Below the pieces are notes generated by a model. The model saw nothing but the letters and a program-made list of their open reading frames with translations, did no database searches and had not been told where the DNA came from. Below, one piece after another: positions 31,163 through 39,699 of a DNA stretch of 64,000 nucleotides (position 1 is the stretch's first letter; each line of letters begins with the position of its first letter). Location: the NCBI RefSeq assembly GCF_000002995.4, contig NW_025062475.1, positions 5,832,187-5,896,186 on the forward strand. Reading direction: 5' to 3'. Position numbers and translations under genes: made by a program. This DNA comes from Brugia malayi. Its lineage: Eukaryota; Nematoda; Chromadorea; Rhabditida; Onchocercidae.

Positions 31163-32247
31163 ATTCCCCGTCGAGTCTTTATATCATTGCTTTCCTATCA
31201 ATTATTTTATATTCACTGTCGAAGTGATTATTAGTTTGCATGCAATAAACTCATCGTTCCTTAATTTTTCAACATATAAAAAAATAACAGTGTTTTCACA
31301 GATTCTTAATGTGAGCTGAGATATTATCATTTGGATATACGTGAAGCATTGTATTTTGGACACACGTGACAACTATCATTCATGTATCAGCATTTAAGTG
31401 CATTTGGATATACGTCAAGCTTAACTTAATAATTGTGTTAATGATTCAGTACATATTTCATCAGTTTAAGTTTTAAAATTGTTAGCAATTTCTGTCTATT
31501 TATAGTCGATCTACTTTTGAACAGTATGTAGTAATCGTTACGTCATATTTCCACAAATATTAATTTTGAAAGAATAAATTTAAATTTGTATAATTTTCTG
31601 AAAAATCGTAAATTTTTAAACCTAAGTTATTAGAAATTTTAGAAATTCTGATTAAGACGGATCAGATAGAAATTCTGATTAAGACGGATTCAGACGGATT
31701 TTATCATTTCATAATATTTTTTGAACAATAATTTCTTGTGTCACTCCTTACTAAATAGTTTATTGATAAATGAATCAGATCAAAATTCAAATTTGCCCTC
31801 AATGACGAAACATATGTGCTGACATCTTTTGTAGATATCATAGCATTTTCCCACTGCTATTTTGCATAAATTGGTTGTTTCTTACTGCAATGCATAAAAA
31901 AGAAAATTTAGAAAGAAAAAAAATCTCGAATAATATAACAAAAAGGATTGCAACACTAGGAGACTCATCATTTAAGAGAATTGAACTGTGAAAGTACTCT
32001 GTCAAATTAGGACGACAACTGAATTACAACTGATACATTAATGAACTTAGCATAATTAATTCGAAACTGTTGAGCAAAATTACGAATATAGTTCGTTTAG
32101 GGTAATATAAAATCGATCATTTCTGATTGTTCAAGTGTAGGAAATAAACAATTTAATAATGCAAGAAAACTAATAAAGAAAAATAAACGACGTAATTAAT
32201 TTTCAACCTAAACTAGACAATATGAAGTTATTAAACGATATTTATGG
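31163..32247. other. Intergenic region between the MSP gene and the inverted duplication
   Basis: About 1.1 kb with no recognisable gene. The MSP-gene 3' UTR comes first. CATTTGGATATACGTSAAGC occurs twice (about 31329 and 31401), and a 27-bp tandem duplication lies at 31641-31700. Confidence 0.55.
31641..31700. repeat. 27-bp tandem duplication
   Basis: AGAAATTCTGATTAAGACGG followed by ATCAGAT is repeated directly with a 27-base offset. Confidence 0.75.
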
Positions 32248-32319
32248 GCGTCAGTGGTGTAATGGTCAGCATGGTTGCCTTCCAAGCAATCGACGGGGGT
32301 TCGATTCCCCCCTGACGCA
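32248..32319 (+). tRNA. tRNA-Gly (anticodon TCC), left-arm copy
   Basis: 72 bases fold as a complete cloverleaf. The acceptor stem is GCGTCAG/CTGACGC with discriminator A, the anticodon stem GTTGC/GCAAT encloses loop CTTCCAA (TCC), and the T arm GGGGG-TTCGATT-CCCCC carries a good B box. TTTT about 15 bases downstream can end Pol III transcription. It is identical to the minus-strand copy at 38417-38488. Its first base is also the first base of the left arm of the inverted duplication, so its 5' flank differs from that of the other copy. Confidence 0.97.
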
Positions 32320-32360
32320 TCTGGGAGCAGTATTTTCTCTGGTCCACCGCCATTTTACAG

Positions 32361-32959
32361 GTTGTGGCCACCACTCAAAATATCCTACAACTCAGTTGCA
32401 ACACACACCATACTGCTCTACATTATGTTGGCTTATGACCTGGTATGTATTTCACATTAAGGTTTCCAAGCAAATTTGGCTATGATACTTGGAAGTAATG
32501 CAGAACAAATAAAGTGCATGCTGAGTGAGAAGCATCTATGATAGATTGATTAAAAATGTACAGGCAGACACACCGACTGTATGCCTAATCGATCCTAAGA
32601 ATGAGAAGTTTTAATCTGTTTGGAAATATCACTGATAATTTACAATGCATGGTCACTCTCAGGTAATCGTGATGATCGCCACTGGTCTTCTTCGTGCGCT
32701 GTTAACTTTTGATAAGCAAATCGTCCGAATGCATTTATGCTTTGATTACTTTGCATTAGCATTCAACGTGATCACATTGGTACTATTCCTTCCGGCCTTA
32801 TTCTTACCAAATTCTGAAGGTCGCAATTTCGCTAATATATTACTGACTGTGTGCTTTCTGACTCAAATACCACTGCAGATATGGGCCATAACGGTGTTGC
32901 GTTCATGTCTGGAATTCTTCGTTTTGGTGCATGTATTGGTTGAATTGGCGGAGAGATGA
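32361..32959 (+). pseudogene. 5'-truncated copy of the four-TM protein gene
   Basis: Copies of exons 3 (32361-32442) and 4 (32663-32959) of the gene at 37777-39699, with intact splice signals and an unbroken frame to the stop. Exons 1 and 2 and the parent promoter are absent because the duplication begins inside intron 2 at the tRNA. Without a start exon it is probably not translated as the parent protein. An ATG at 32645, just before exon 4, opens a 104-codon frame through the acceptor that could in principle give a two- or three-TM fragment. The lack of decay reflects recent origin rather than proven function. Confidence 0.8.
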
Positions 32960-33404
32960 TTCATACAGAAATGAGACATTTGAAGACTGATAATATTACT
33001 AGAATATAAAGCTATGATAATTATTCTCATCATATGTTGCTGATAAAGACAAAAGTAATATTTAAACAAATGAACAACAAAATAGAAAAGTTTCTCGACG
33101 TACTACGGATGTCTTCTGATGAAATCTGTTTAGATCATACCTATCATGCTTAACAACATGAATTTCGCTTTAATTGAAGAACAACAAGCACTCTCTAACA
33201 CTTCGGAATTTTCACCACCATAGCATATTTAGTGTACCGTGTTCAACAAACAGAGTGATAATCTGGCATTGTATCAGTGGTACCACATCACCACATTTAA
33301 TTCTTGGCTTAAAGTTAATTGGATGCTGAAATACCTTGGAAACATTTGTGATACATGTCTATGTAATGCAGCTGTGATGCCGTGTATAAATATTCATACA
33401 GTTT

Positions 33405-33506
33405 AACATAATTTCACAGCTAAAATATGTTATTGTCAACAAATTTGTTTATAAAAACATAATTTCACAGCTAAAATATGTTATTGTCAACAAAAAATTT
33501 GTTTGT
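33405..33506. repeat. 51-bp tandem duplication at the arm end
   Basis: AACATAATTTCACAGCTAAA and the following bases are repeated with a 51-base offset. The first copy belongs to the left arm; the second starts exactly where similarity to the right arm stops (33456). The right arm has a single copy. Confidence 0.85.
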
Positions 33507-35079
33507 TTATATCACTCAGTGTCTTCTCATTCACTTCAAAAACTTGCATCTCATCTGACCATCAACCACATTGAACTTAGTTTTCCCAAAAGAAAATAAT
33601 ATAAGACTTTGAACTAGCTTTCCAACTTATGAGTTTCAGGTTCTTGACATGGATGTCCATATTAACAGCTGAAACTAGTTTATTATTTTGCTTCTTGAAA
33701 AGAATTCCTTAAATCATGAGTCTTAGAATATCGAGTTGTCCGGAAATCAATCCTCTTCCCAGTGTTATTTGAAGTCTATTTTTGAACGAACTGCTTCTCT
33801 ATTTGACAAATAATTTTTCCACACTTTCTTTGAAACATACATCAAAATTCATCTGCTAACTTCCGTTTAAATAACTCTAATCGATAGATAATTTATCTCA
33901 AATGAATTTTATTCATTACAATTGATTAAGTTTAATAAATTTATAAACTTAATCAATTGTAATGATTTTTTGTAATGATTCATAATTGATTTTTTATTTG
34001 TGCGAATTATTCATTTGCATTTATTTTTCCCTTAATTAATCTGATATTATCTTTAATGAAGTAATTATCTCCTTGCAAATTAAGCTTACAAAAGGATAAT
34101 TATACAAGAGCCAAATAGTTTAACACTCAATTTTGCTAGTTAGTCTGTCCAATTGTGACAAAGTATGCGTGAAAAACATAAAGAACAAGTGATCATTTTA
34201 CAGGTCAGTCTTGATGACCTTCCTGTTTAGTTTTCTTCTGACCTTATTCAACCTTACGACAAGTGAAATAATTTTAACAGAGAATGTTAACTATGTATAA
34301 CATATGGATGACAAATCTTCTTCACCAGTCCCTTATTTTCTTTCATTTCAAGTCAGAAAACTTCTTGTCCTTAATGGCTGAACTTCAGACTTAGGTTAAG
34401 AAACTTAGTATGAAATTTTAGTTCATTCAAAGAATTACTACTTCTCTTCTTTATAGCTAACTTGACGTTGCCAGAAATGTGGCAACTTTACATCATTGAA
34501 TCTAATGACGGTTTACTGAGACATCTTGTTATACGATATTTCTCTTCATTAGATTCATTTTCATCATAGTTATTTCGCACTGAACGTCATGACCCCTCGG
34601 AATAATTTCAGTATATAGTATTGGATTAATCAAACAATAGCACGTAATTCTAGTTATGAAAGTTAACGATGCGTAAAAACAATTAAATAGGCAATTAATT
34701 GCTCGCATTATTCATTTCTACTGGTTAGAAGGAATGCGAAAGAAAATGGAAGGACTTCTTGTATGGTATACTGGGCTTTAATTTCTTTCTTACTTTTTGT
34801 ACCTCACATATTGGAGTAATCTTACGGAGATTATACGCTAGCAGACGTATGGATGTAAAATTGTTTGATAGGTTGGATAAGGTATAGCGTAACAAAGTTA
34901 AGAGCCAAGTATTCCATTATCTACAACTATCCAACGTTATATTTTCAGATGAAGGGCATATGTAGACTTAAAGGAATCACAATGGATAAGAATGGGTAGA
35001 AAGCGGTGTAAGGTAGGACGAGAAGCGCGGATGTGAGATTTGCTGGTATTTTGTATGTCTTTTCAAGAATATATTTCAG
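33507..35079. other. Spacer upstream of the coiled-coil gene
   Basis: About 1.6 kb without recognisable exons. It contains a 51-base palindromic hairpin (33914-33964) and presumably the coiled-coil gene's promoter. Confidence 0.55.
33914..33964. repeat. Perfect 20-bp inverted repeat (hairpin)
   Basis: CATTACAATTGATTAAGTTT pairs perfectly with AAACTTAATCAATTGTAATG across 11 bases. It lies in the spacer of the large inverted duplication, 459 bases inside the left arm end. It could be a MITE remnant or a cruciform-forming site. Confidence 0.75.
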
Positions 35080-35092
35080 GCTGTTTGCAAGA

Positions 35093-36964
35093 ATGAATAC
35101 GGAAAGTGATGAATTAGTTGCTGAGTTGCGGAAAGCTGTATCCATCAAGAAATCAGGTTACTATTTATCATATTTAATCTTCTTTAGAGCACTCCTATTA
35201 TTTTAAATTTTTAGGAAGGCGCGATGCAGTTCTTTATCTTTCATTCACTCTCTCTCCTGCTTTACACATAAATGCTTTTAATTGCAGAAGTGGCTCATTT
35301 GAAGGAAGAATTTGGCAATTACAAAAAGCATTTGGCTCTATTGACATCGGAAATTGCTGAAGGTTTGTCTGATCTCTCTTATAAATTTCGAAAATTTCAC
35401 CTTCGGCAACGATTTTTGCGTACTAGTTTTATGATTGCTGATAATATTTTAGCTAACTCTAAATTTTTGGAGTATTGAAGCAGTTTTGATTATCAGATGA
35501 TTTCTCTACTTAGAATTGAAAATCTCTTTCTGAAAATTGGTAGAAAGTTGTATTGCAATTTTCCTACGTAGCATATTGAATGCTTACTGAATATATTCGT
35601 GATGGTTATAATATATAAGCAATACAGATTTCATTATTTATAGGAAGAGCGGAAATAGCTGCTAACAGAATCAAGATTGCCACTTTGGATGCTGACAAAT
35701 TCTCATGCGTTCAGATAGAAAAGCTAAGTACTGAATTAATCGATAAGTAAGCATTTTGATCAACACTTTTTTGTTTATGCAGACTTCTTTTTGTTTTCTT
35801 GATTTACTATTCATACTTTTCAAATTATCCCATCAGTTCAAATAATCGTGTCACACATTCTATTTTGTTTAAAGTTCAATTTACTTCTTTTTGTATTAAT
35901 TGTTGCTTTCCATTTTCTTTTGAAATATCATTTAGATTTGATGTTATGTGTAAAGAAGTATGTGCAATAAACGAAGAAGCAGAGAAACAGGTTGTCGACT
36001 TGCAGTTGGAAATTGAAGCAACAAAGGATGTCAAAAATGTTATTAGCGCTTATGAGGAAACATTAGGAATGTTACGTATTATGGTAGGTCTTTTCTTTGC
36101 TGTTTTTGTGTTCACCAATTGATCATTTCATGTTAGCTTCTCAACTTAGTGCTCTTATCAATTTTGTCTATAGCCATTTCAAATTGAAAAGTTATTTCAA
36201 ATTCTCTGAAACTTACAATAAAAAACCTAAAATTAAAACCTACATCCTTTCTCACTGAATGCTACCTGCTTTTGAGTTTTTTTTTTTTTTTTTTTTTTGG
36301 GATTTTACGAAAGAACTTCTGGGATAAAATTCTAATCAAATTCTTTTAGAGATTTTGTGACAACGATGGCATGAATGATACACGTAGAGATATTGAAAAT
36401 GCACAGAATGAATGTAAGCTACTCATTCTGTTTGGGTATTACTTAATGATTTCTTCTGACGTTTATCAATTGGGGAATTAATGATGTGTTTCAGTGCAGA
36501 TGCTGTCAGATGAGATGCAAGTTTTTGAAGTGAATGAGAAGACACTGAGTGATAAATTGAGTACTGTTGCATACACTGACATTCCACTGGTAGTTAAACA
36601 TCAAATTTAGTAAGTTTTTACTTCCAATTTGCAACATTTTTCATTCATCTAATTAATTATGCAAAATCAATCATACTCATATTTCCAAGAATGGATTTTA
36701 TGTTCATCCTAATGATGCTAATAAGATTCAAGCCCATCTAATAGCCACTCGAAATTCCATTTCCCCATGGAGTTTCAATATACTCTCCCATTAAGGAGGA
36801 CTGATGGGAGAGTGACAAAGTTTTAAAATTTATGTTGTTCACAATAGGAATTCATTTGCAGCGACAATTTAAAGAAGCGTAAAGGGGAATTGATTCGCAA
36901 ACTTATGCATGCACGACTCAGTCGAAGCCGTCTGGATACCAGATTTGTGTTGAGCGATTTGTGA
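35093..36964 (+). CDS. Coiled-coil protein of unknown function
   Basis: Seven exons join in phase: 35093-35156, 35288-35362, 35644-35746, 35936-36083, 36350-36413, 36495-36609 and 36862-36964; 223 aa. The start follows a good acceptor (TATATTTCAG, ending 35079) by 13 bases, as expected for a trans-spliced leader. The protein is almost wholly helical and charged. Heptad-like segments cover about residues 7-45 (ELVAELRKAVSIKKSEVAHL), 55-125 and 140-170, and the C-terminus is basic (NLKKRKGELIRKLMHARL). No signal peptide, TM segment or catalytic motif is visible and I recognise no family; a small structural or complex-forming protein is the best guess. AATAAA lies at 37070-37075. The gene is the only one in the spacer between the two inverted arms and is transcribed toward the right arm. 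Confidence 0.85.
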
Positions 36965-37281
36965 ATATATCATACTACTATACCAATGTATTGGCGTATT
37001 GTTGGAGCTGGAGGTTCTACAGACACTAAGATGAGCAAACTTTTTTACTGATGGCAGAACCCGAGAAGGAATAAAACTAGGAGTATCTTCAGTATTGTTA
37101 TTTTTTGCTGAATTTAAATACGTTGTTTTTCATAACCGTTTGTGGAATATTGCAAGACAGAACAATACTTCATATTGGACAGTAATACAATCTTTTTGTT
37201 TGAGTGATAAAAAGTATCAATTATAAGAAAAAAGGAGATGATGATTAATTTATATTTTGTGTTCAATGATCTTTATGCTTG

Positions 37282-38488
37282 TTTATAAACAAATTTGTTG
37301 ACAATAACATATTTTAGCTGTGAAATTATGTTAAACTGTATGAATATTTATACACGGCATCACAGCTGCATTACATAGACATGTATCACAAATGTTTCCA
37401 AGTATTTCAGCATCCAATTAACTTTAAGCCAAGAATTAAATGTGGTGATGTGGTACCACTGATACAATGCCAGATTATCACTCTGTTTGTTGAACACGGT
37501 ACACTAAATATGCTATGGTGGTGAAAATTCCGAAGTGTTAGAGAGTGCTTGTTGTTCTTCAATTAAAGCGAAATTCATGTTGTTAAGCATGATAGGTATG
37601 ATCTAAACAGATTTCATCAGAAGACATCCGTAGTACGTCGAGAAACTTTTCTATTTTGTTGTTCATTTGTTTAAATATTACTTTTGTCTTTATCAGCAAC
37701 ATATGATGAGAATAATTATCATAGCTTTATATTCTAGTAATATTATCAGTCTTCAAATGTCTCATTTCTGTATGAATCATCTCTCCGCCAATTCAACCAA
37801 TACATGCACCAAAACGAAGAATTCCAGACATGAACGCAACACCGTTATGGCCCATATCTGCAGTGGTATTTGAGTCAGAAAGCACACAGTCAGTAATATA
37901 TTAGCGAAATTGCGACCTTCAGAATTTGGTAAGAATAAGGCCGGAAGGAATAGTACCAATGTGATCACGTTGAATGCTAATGCAAAGTAATCAAAGCATA
38001 AATGCATTCGGACGATTTGCTTATCAAAAGTTAACAGCGCACGAAGAAGACCAGTGGCGATCATCACGATTACCTGAGAGTGACCATGCATTGTAAATTA
38101 TCAGTGATATTTCCAAACAGATTAAAACTTCTCATTCTTAGGATCGATTAGGCATACAGTCGGTGTGTCTGCCTGTACATTTTTAATCAATCTATCATAG
38201 ATGCTTCTCACTCAGCATGCACTTTATTTGTTCTGCATTACTTCCAAGTATCATAGCCAAATTTGCTTGGAAACCTTAATGTGAAATACATACCAGGTCA
38301 TAAGCCAACATAATGTAGAGCAGTATGGTGTGTGTTGCAACTGAGTTGTAGGATATTTTGAGTGGTGGCCACAACCTGTAAAATCGCGGTGGACCAGAGA
38401 AAATACTGCTCCCAGATGCGTCAGGGGGGAATCGAACCCCCGTCGATTGCTTGGAAGGCAACCATGCTGACCATTACACCACTGACGC
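37282..38488 (-). repeat. Right arm of the 1.2 kb inverted duplication
   Basis: Reverse complement of 32248-33455 with two differences seen in 1.2 kb. This arm is the 3' part of the complete four-TM gene (introns 2 and 3, exons 3 and 4, 3' flank), so it is probably the source copy. The homology stops at 38488 at the tRNA 5' end and at 37282 in the 3' flank of the gene. The 317 bases between the coiled-coil stop and this arm hold that gene's 3' UTR and nothing else visible. Confidence 0.95.
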
Positions 38489-39699
38489 GTCAGAAATCTC
38501 TCTAGAAAGCCGTCTGAACAATCTCAAAATAAGTTCGAATTTGAAACAGTTTAACGTACTGAGAAAGTCCACCGCTGTGAAAACGTAGAATAATTGCAGT
38601 AAGTGTAGCGAGGACATAAATGTATTCGAAGATAGCAATGGCTGTACAGCCGCAGCGAATAAGACAAGAAGACGAGCAACACAATGGCTCCAATTCCAAA
38701 TGACGCTCGCAAATCCTGATGATTATTGCAAATGTTTACAGAAAAGGACCAACTACTGGCAGATTATAGTTCGAAAAATGAATAGATCTTATTGTGTAAA
38801 AATGAAATCAGCTAGAAAAAACATGAAAATGGTGTAAACACTTACTTGGGGTCAAGTGGTACAACCTTGTTATTCTTCCTTTGCCTGGAAGTCATCGTAT
38901 GATTTCCGCTTACCGGTATTCTTTGTGTCATTATCATCCGGTGTTTCGGGGAATTCTGTGACGATACTGCAGCAAAAAGGTGTATAAAAGGAAATTATAT
39001 GAGAGATGAAGTAGTTATTGCACTGTAACTGAATGTCTAAGTGCTATCAGTGCTCCCGAGGATTCTGTGAATGGAATGACCACCGAGATCATCAGATCCA
39101 TGGCCCTAATGAAGTCATTCCATATTTCGATTTAACCTCATAAATTTTGCACCTACGCCAAAGCTGAACATGATTTCATGAGATGAACTGCCTAAGATAG
39201 ACAAAACAGAACCTGAGTGACAACAATGGCAGTCGAAATGTCGTAACCACTTAAGCACTGACCAATGTGGAATCACAGGATAGTGCTCTACCCGTCCTCC
39301 AGACACTTCGGTAGATTTGATGTCATTATCTGACACTACCTGTTAATGCACATTGTTCATTATCTTTCTACTACCTGCATCATTCTTTTCTTCCTTAATC
39401 GTAATGAGATTTCGACCGTACCACTAATGAAAGTAGTGAAGTACAGTATCTTTGCTTCGATGAGTGAAGACAAAAGTCATTTAAGCATATATTGATTAAA
39501 TACTGTCATAACATATACTGAAATTGACTTTAAATTGATCAGACAGAAGCTAAACAACTCTGTATACATCACTGAAGTCTTAGCTAATAATAGATAAATG
39601 GCTGGATGGATAGAGAGACACACTTACTTGTTGAGTGGTTACTCTCGTGGCGTTCTTTTCATCTGTCACCGATTGTCCTTCTTCCCTTATCCAAAACAT
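37777..39699 (-). CDS. Four-TM nematode membrane protein; hosts a tRNA gene in an intron
   Basis: The core exons are 38715-38560, 38375-38294 and 38073-37777, preceded by 38966-38846. Two 5' exons (39699-39628, and 39339-39213 whose donor is uncertain) keep phase, giving 284 aa; starting instead at the ATG at 38931 gives 206 aa. A TTTTAG acceptor seven bases before the ATG at 39699 fits a trans-spliced leader. The N-terminal ~110 residues are polar and presumably cytosolic. A cysteine-rich stretch (CCSSSCLIRCGC) then leads into four hydrophobic helices with a conserved-looking central DKQIVRMHLCFDY. The layout recalls small LAPTM/MTP-like tetraspan proteins of nematodes, but I cannot assign a family firmly. 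tRNA-Gly lies in the intron between 38560 and 38375 on the same strand. The last two exons are duplicated in inverted orientation at 32361-32959. Confidence 0.8.
38417..38488 (-). tRNA. tRNA-Gly (anticodon TCC), right-arm copy
   Basis: Same 72-base cloverleaf as 32248-32319, in reverse orientation. It sits within an intron of the four-TM protein gene, in the same transcriptional direction. Its 5' flank (beyond 38488) is not shared with the other copy. Confidence 0.97.

What the first reader, a model, noticed from the sequence alone, without database searches (positions are those of the whole stretch)
32248..38488. Nearly identical 1.2 kb inverted duplication flanking a single-copy gene
The arms 32248-33455 and 38488-37282 differ at only two positions that I could find in 1.2 kb. 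Each carries a tRNA-Gly(TCC) and the last two exons of a four-TM gene. The 3.8 kb spacer contains a seven-exon coiled-coil gene. Such a structure is either very young or kept uniform by gene conversion. It could let the spacer invert by recombination between the arms, and readthrough transcripts could form long double-stranded RNA. An assembly artefact (collapsed haplotypes joined head to head) is an alternative.
Basis: partly seen in the sequence, partly recalled or inferred. Interest (0 to 1): 0.75.

Follow-up and report, generated by a model that had tools for sequence, protein, structure and literature searches.

The report
tRNA-anchored inverted gene-fragment duplication
A stretch of worm DNA that begins exactly at a tRNA gene has been copied in reverse a few kilobases away, probably when a broken chromosome used one tRNA gene to invade its twin; it looks like the scar of a repair error, not a working device.

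Summary
The inverted duplication is real: arms 32248-33455 and 38488-37282 differ by one substitution and one 1-nt indel. A genome search with the arm found only these two places plus a bare tRNA. The genome fits Brugia malayi v4 (inference). The right arm is the original: it belongs to a longer gene, and an Onchocerca volvulus protein model has the same tRNA-Gly between the same exons. The left copy lacks the upstream exons and ends in debris: its 1,312 nt (32248-33559) are rebuilt from three successive pieces of the right locus on one strand, with 9 nt unmatched. The outer edge is exactly the tRNA 5' end. In 13 of 13 tRNA pairs examined, 5' identity ends within 6 nt, so two older tRNA genes probably gave the foothold; a Dirofilaria model hints at an upstream tRNA, ambiguously. 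Likely mechanism: break beside the left tRNA, invasion of the right tRNA, 1.2 kb copied, two jumps, end joining. I found no support for a spacer switch or dsRNA role; an assembly artefact is unlikely. It belongs to a known kind: short, partial, inverted local duplicates.

The parts
32248..33455 (+). left (derived) arm: copy of 38488-37282 reversed
32248..32319 (+). left tRNA-Gly(TCC); its 5' end is the outer edge of the repeat
32361..32442 (+). copied exon 3 of the membrane-protein gene, no upstream exons
32663..32959 (+). copied last exon of the membrane-protein gene
33456..33511 (+). second partial copy of 37332->37284 (reversed), with 7 extra nt at 33495-33501; last 2 nt shared with the next piece
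33510..33559 (+). 50-nt copy of 36554->36505 (exon 6 of the spacer gene, reversed); end of the copied material
35093..36964 (+). seven-exon coiled-coil-like gene (223 aa) in the spacer; no second copy among the matches
36505..36554 (+). donor of the 50-nt debris piece
37279..37292 (.). 14-nt perfect palindrome in which both template exits (37282 and 37284) lie
37282..38488 (-). right (original) arm
37777..38895 (-). membrane-protein gene, minimal four-exon model (38895-38846, 38715-38560, 38375-38294, 38073-37777); relatives have further 5' sequence
38417..38488 (-). right tRNA-Gly(TCC) in the second intron of this model, same strand as the gene
   Evidence: O. volvulus P0007

Best explanation
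A recent, probably non-functional, partial inverted duplication made by DNA repair. Two tRNA-Gly(TCC) genes already faced each other a few kb apart: one upstream of the coiled-coil gene, one in an intron of the membrane-protein gene. A break just 3' of the left tRNA let that end invade the right tRNA (72 bp of homology) and copy on through the last two exons for 1.2 kb. The polymerase left the template at an AT-rich palindrome (37282), fell back 51 nt, recopied with 7 extra nt, left again at 37284, jumped to 36554 in the neighbouring gene, copied 50 nt, and was joined at 33560. Shown: arm identity, order and strand of the copied pieces, right arm as the donor. Inferred: the pre-existing left tRNA, the break, the end joining and the polymerase behaviour.
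For: Right copy is the original: the upstream exons lie only there, longer relatives exist in many filariae, and the O. volvulus model P0007 has the translated tRNA between the same two exons. The 1,312 nt of 32248-33559 are rebuilt from three donor pieces in descending order on one strand; unmatched are 1 substitution, one 1-nt and one 7-nt insertion. Both exits from the donor lie 2 nt apart within one 14-nt palindrome (palindromes of 14+ nt cover 0.2% of the window). Homology begins at the exact tRNA 5' end. Among 30 tRNA loci held with flanks (of 58 tRNA matches), 13 pairs have equal length and at most 1 difference: 13 of 13 share 6 nt or fewer just 5' of the tRNA, 12 of 13 share 2 nt or fewer just 3' of it; the exception is this pair, on its 3' side only. 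The third identical tRNA-Gly has unrelated flanks. D. immitis DINM_001600 (P0033) begins with this translated tRNA and runs into the coiled-coil protein (listed, sequence). If no splice lies between, its 5' flank reads ATGGC|GCG, like the window's left flank ATGG|GCG; the O. volvulus flank, read the same way, ends AC|GCG like the right flank.
Against: The upstream tRNA in D. immitis rests on one protein model; an inverted spacer in that species could put the intronic tRNA upstream instead. The 20 residues read 3' of that tRNA resemble the arm's own 3' flank a little (5 of 20 identical; 153 of 10,000 shuffles score as high), which speaks for the intronic tRNA or for an older arm, not for an arm-free left site. 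The 5' flank resemblance is only 4-5 nt. No empty site from a relative was seen. The two junctions between copied pieces show 0 and 2 nt of overlap, so pairing does not explain the jumps. The two short palindromic stretches fold no better than shuffles as single strands (z -0.25 and 0.33).
Confidence: 0.5

Rival explanations
1. De novo replicative template switching (FoSTeS/MMBIR-like): the whole segment, tRNA included, was copied from the right locus into a site that had no tRNA; the outer break fell at the tRNA 5' end because tRNA genes or the local palindrome stall forks.
For: Debris of the switching type at the inner end. Both donor ends lie in perfect palindromes: 12-mer 38482-38493 at the tRNA edge and 14-mer 37279-37292; palindromes of 12+ nt cover 0.9% of the window.
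Against: Requires the break to hit the tRNA edge to the base; the D. immitis model may mean an older left tRNA. The short hairpins are weak.
Confidence: 0.25
2. An older inverted duplication, predating the split from other Brugia, Wuchereria or even Dirofilaria, kept uniform by gene conversion between the arms.
For: A B. timori model (P0036, 67 aa, on a 14.4-kb contig) consists only of the last exon and starts inside the intron, as a left copy would. The D. immitis upstream tRNA model resembles the arm's 3' flank slightly. W. bancrofti models are odd at the same place (P0002, P0032).
Against: P0036 could also be a model of the right copy. B. timori is very close to B. malayi (recalled). B. pahangi is typically >90% identical to B. 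malayi (PMC7330237, whole text), so with arms at 99.8% youth alone suffices.
Confidence: 0.16
3. Assembly artefact.
For: Inverted repeats can arise from chimeric long reads (recalled); the assembly was manually edited (PMC7291094, whole text).
Against: The arms end abruptly in unlike outer flanks; a missed-adapter read would mirror everything outward. The junction holds a three-piece rearrangement, the arms differ at two positions, and the PacBio subreads (N50 8,771, mean 5,930 bp) include many long enough to span 6.2 kb.
Confidence: 0.04
4. A functional device: an invertible spacer, or a hairpin-RNA source silencing the membrane-protein gene.
For: 1.2-kb inverted arms around a gene permit inversion in principle (general knowledge).
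Against: The left arm lacks the upstream exons; the debris looks accidental; two odd gene models are compatible with an ancestral orientation. Neither recombinases nor expression were examined.
Confidence: 0.03

Closest known systems
Newborn partial inverted gene duplicates of C. elegans (PMC2728529 and PMC4546093, passages seen; the authors of the worm study, Katju and Lynch, are recalled)
   Same: Adjacent, inverted, nearly undiverged, span close to the reported 1.4-kb median, structurally incomplete copy.
   Different: Here the outer edge is a tRNA gene and the inner edge carries sequential copied debris, so the event can be read step by step.
One-sided invasion repair: homologous at one end, not at the other (Puchta 1998, as cited in PMC9369344; two passages seen)
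   Same: Homology at one end only, rearranged joining at the other.
   Different: That paper deals with targeted integration in plant cells; here a natural event anchored on facing tRNA genes, inferred and not observed.
Inverted copy-number variants by replication template switching (ODIRA, FoSTeS, MMBIR; PMC10766186, passages seen)
   Same: Inverted copies, changes of template, little microhomology.
   Different: ODIRA predicts an inverted triplication from short inverted repeats 40-80 bp apart; here two copies with 3.8 kb between the arms.

Membership tests
Young local inverted partial gene duplicate (C. elegans type) | Adjacent, inverted orientation | tested here: met
Young local inverted partial gene duplicate (C. 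elegans type) | Partial copy of the ancestral gene, near-zero divergence | tested here: met
   both exons (379 nt) found unchanged in the left arm
One-sided invasion anchored on tRNA | Homology between both sites before the event, at one end | tested here: inconclusive
   exact tRNA edge; D. immitis model P0033 for and partly against; no outgroup DNA available
One-sided invasion anchored on tRNA | Other end without homology, with templated debris | tested here: inconclusive
   templated debris shown; absence of homology at the final join cannot be shown without the empty site
Transposable element insertion | Many copies, terminal repeats, target-site duplication | tested here: not met
   two places found for the arm (counts are lower bounds); no shared flank seen at 32247 and 33560 (by eye)
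Retroposed copy | Introns lost, A tail | tested here: not met
   intron between the exons kept; no A tail at 33559
Gene-conversion-maintained inverted repeat | Arms shared by relatives yet more alike within than between species | not testable with these tools
   states that the genome has no relatives here
ODIRA-type inverted triplication | Three copies with short-spaced palindromic junctions | tested here: not met
   two copies, 3.8-kb spacing; a later loss of a copy is not excluded

The most novel reading that the evidence does not exclude
Facing copies of tRNA genes act as recurrent recombination anchors in filarial genomes: they seed inverted duplications and keep this locus rearranging. 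The W. bancrofti model P0002 leaves the membrane-protein gene and resumes at 36506, within 1-2 nt of where the B. malayi copy tract ends (36505), which could be breakpoint reuse or a shared older event.
Probability: 0.1. Interest if true: 0.55.

Novelty: new member of a known kind. Interest (0 to 1): 0.33.

Why it matters
It is a young, almost undecayed repair scar in a genome that fits a human parasite, and its copying steps can be read: a foothold on a tRNA gene, a long copy tract, two jumps and a join. It offers a concrete test of whether dispersed tRNA genes serve as homology anchors for segmental duplication in nematodes, and it warns that the left partial gene is probably a pseudogene fragment. 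If the spacer ever inverts in populations, the locus would be a natural assay of recombination between inverted repeats.

Tried and rejected
Retroposition from a tRNA read-through transcript: rejected because a TTTT run follows the tRNA within about 20 nt, the intron is kept, and no A tail or target-site duplication is seen. Transposon, and tRNA-derived SINE: rejected, only two places found. Domain searches of the membrane protein gave nothing: 0 Pfam families and 0 PDB matches with alignment A1. NCBIfam was run on three relatives and not on the window's proteins: 0 for P0002 and P0007, two sub-cut-off hits for P0033. The coiled-coil protein gave only sub-cut-off Pfam hits, best ATG14. Hairpin energetics at the two palindromic stretches gave no support; the debris stretch 33395-33520 folds somewhat better than shuffles (z -1.58, 11 of 200 as good). 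The first tRNA-flank comparison had its output cut and was replaced.

Paper searches: ten. Those aimed at this locus or at tRNA-anchored inverted duplication showed no title on either; one search listed 12 of 38 papers. Apart from the six papers opened (PMC7330237 and PMC7291094 whole; PMC10766186, PMC4546093, PMC2728529, PMC9369344 passages) only listings were seen.

Changes made on checking: one search was added; its result (slight resemblance of the D. immitis 3' flank to the arm) lowered the main model from 0.55 to 0.5 and raised the older-duplication rival from 0.12 to 0.16.

Full report
What is there. The window lies at 5.83-5.90 Mb of a 14.7-Mb contig in an 86.8-Mb genome of 139 contigs (contig lengths). 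Size, the 14.2-Mb contig C136 and the relatives fit B. malayi v4 (87 Mb, N50 14.2 Mb, but 196 scaffolds; PMC7291094, whole text); this identification is inference. The two arms are confirmed with one substitution and one 1-nt indel. Searching the genome with the arm finds only these two places plus one further bare tRNA-Gly (the tool calls its counts lower bounds). In 84 kb no other inverted repeat of 100 bp or more was found, low-complexity filter on.

Which arm is original. The right arm belongs to a gene of four exons in the minimal model (194 aa). One search found 21 relatives, in filariae, Thelazia and other nematodes such as Haemonchus, Angiostrongylus and Auanema; several deposited models have further 5' sequence. 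The tRNA sits in the second intron. In the O. volvulus model P0007 the translated tRNA (RQWCNGQHGCLPSNRRGFDSPLTHL) stands between the same two exons, so this intronic tRNA probably predates the split of the two genera. The left arm has only the last two exons and is therefore derived.

How the left insert is built. Beyond the 1,207-nt tract, the insert repeats 37332->37284 with 7 extra nt, then 36554->36505, and ends at 33559. A model of the three donor pieces (1,304 nt) matches the 1,312-nt insert apart from one substitution, one 1-nt and one 7-nt insertion. The pieces lie in the same strand direction. Both departures from the donor fall 2 nt apart inside the palindrome TTGTTTATAAACAA (37279-37292). 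The first junction has no overlap, the second 2 nt (TA; sequences; the second figure printed used a start one base off). As single strands the two short palindromic stretches fold no better than shuffles, so a hairpin stall is a suggestion only.

Why the outer edge is at the tRNA. One search listed 58 tRNA matches (63 of 4,121 candidates scored, so a lower bound); 30 came with flanks, and 13 pairs among them have equal length and at most one difference. In 13 of 13 the 5' identity stops within 6 nt; in 12 of 13 the 3' identity stops within 2 nt; the exception is the arm pair. The tRNA genes sampled therefore behave as bare units with unrelated flanks, and an edge at the tRNA 5' end is what two older tRNA genes would give. 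D. immitis DINM_001600 (P0033) starts with the translated tRNA and continues into the coiled-coil protein, which suggests a tRNA upstream of that gene. Back-translated, its 5' flank (ATGGC) resembles the left flank (ATGG), whereas that of O. volvulus (ending AC) resembles the right flank (GAC). Against this, the 20 residues read after the D. immitis tRNA resemble the arm's 3' flank slightly (5 identical; 153 of 10,000 shuffles as good), and the second D. immitis model, P0030, begins without the tRNA. So D. immitis may show the intronic tRNA with an inverted spacer, or an older arm. The question stays open without DNA.

Age. One substitution in 1,207 bp corresponds to about 0.15 million generations, 95% Poisson range 0.004-0.85 million; counting the indel too, about 0.31 million (C. 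elegans rate 2.7e-9 recalled). B. pahangi and B. malayi typically show >90% identity (PMC7330237). A B. timori model (P0036) could be a left copy, so the event may predate that close split. Gene conversion cannot be excluded.

Consequences. The spacer gene has an open seven-exon reading and no second full copy among the matches. Nothing seen supports a switch or dsRNA function, but no expression data were at hand. The W. bancrofti model P0002, which leaves the last exon near 37864 and resumes at 36506 in antisense of the spacer gene, is unexplained: at face value it implies convergent genes, as here, but no GT donor is visible at that point in the window's sequence, and another W. bancrofti model (P0034) has the intact last exon.

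Verdict. A real, probably young, well-resolved repair-made inverted duplicate of a kind known in nematodes (C. elegans newborn duplicates are often adjacent and inverted, median span 1.4 kb; PMC2728529 and PMC4546093, passages). What stands out is its exact tRNA edge and readable debris.

Noticed in passing
33913-33965: Near-perfect hairpin (22-bp stem, 9-nt loop; DNA fold z-score -7.6) in the spacer; no other copy among the matches listed.
   Followed up: partly
G000 C135:5543569-5544808 (L025-L027): Three identical 74-nt tRNA genes within 1.3 kb, one of them inverted, sharing at most 1 nt outside the tRNA on either side.
   Followed up: partly
protein models P0007 and P0033: A tRNA-Gly gene is translated as part of deposited O. 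volvulus and D. immitis proteins: apparent annotation errors that preserve synteny information.
   Followed up: yes
window 37864 and 36506 (W. bancrofti P0002): A W. bancrofti model joins these two places without a canonical splice donor in the window's sequence, 1-2 nt from the end of the B. malayi copy tract; P0032, a W. bancrofti model of the spacer gene, stops after exon 4.
   Followed up: partly
38482-38493: 12-nt perfect palindrome CTGACGCGTCAG spans the 5' edge of the right tRNA.
   Followed up: partly
homologues P0018-P0020: Relatives of the membrane protein bear UniRef names such as glycerophosphocholine acyltransferase 1, although no Pfam family matched the window's protein.
   Followed up: no
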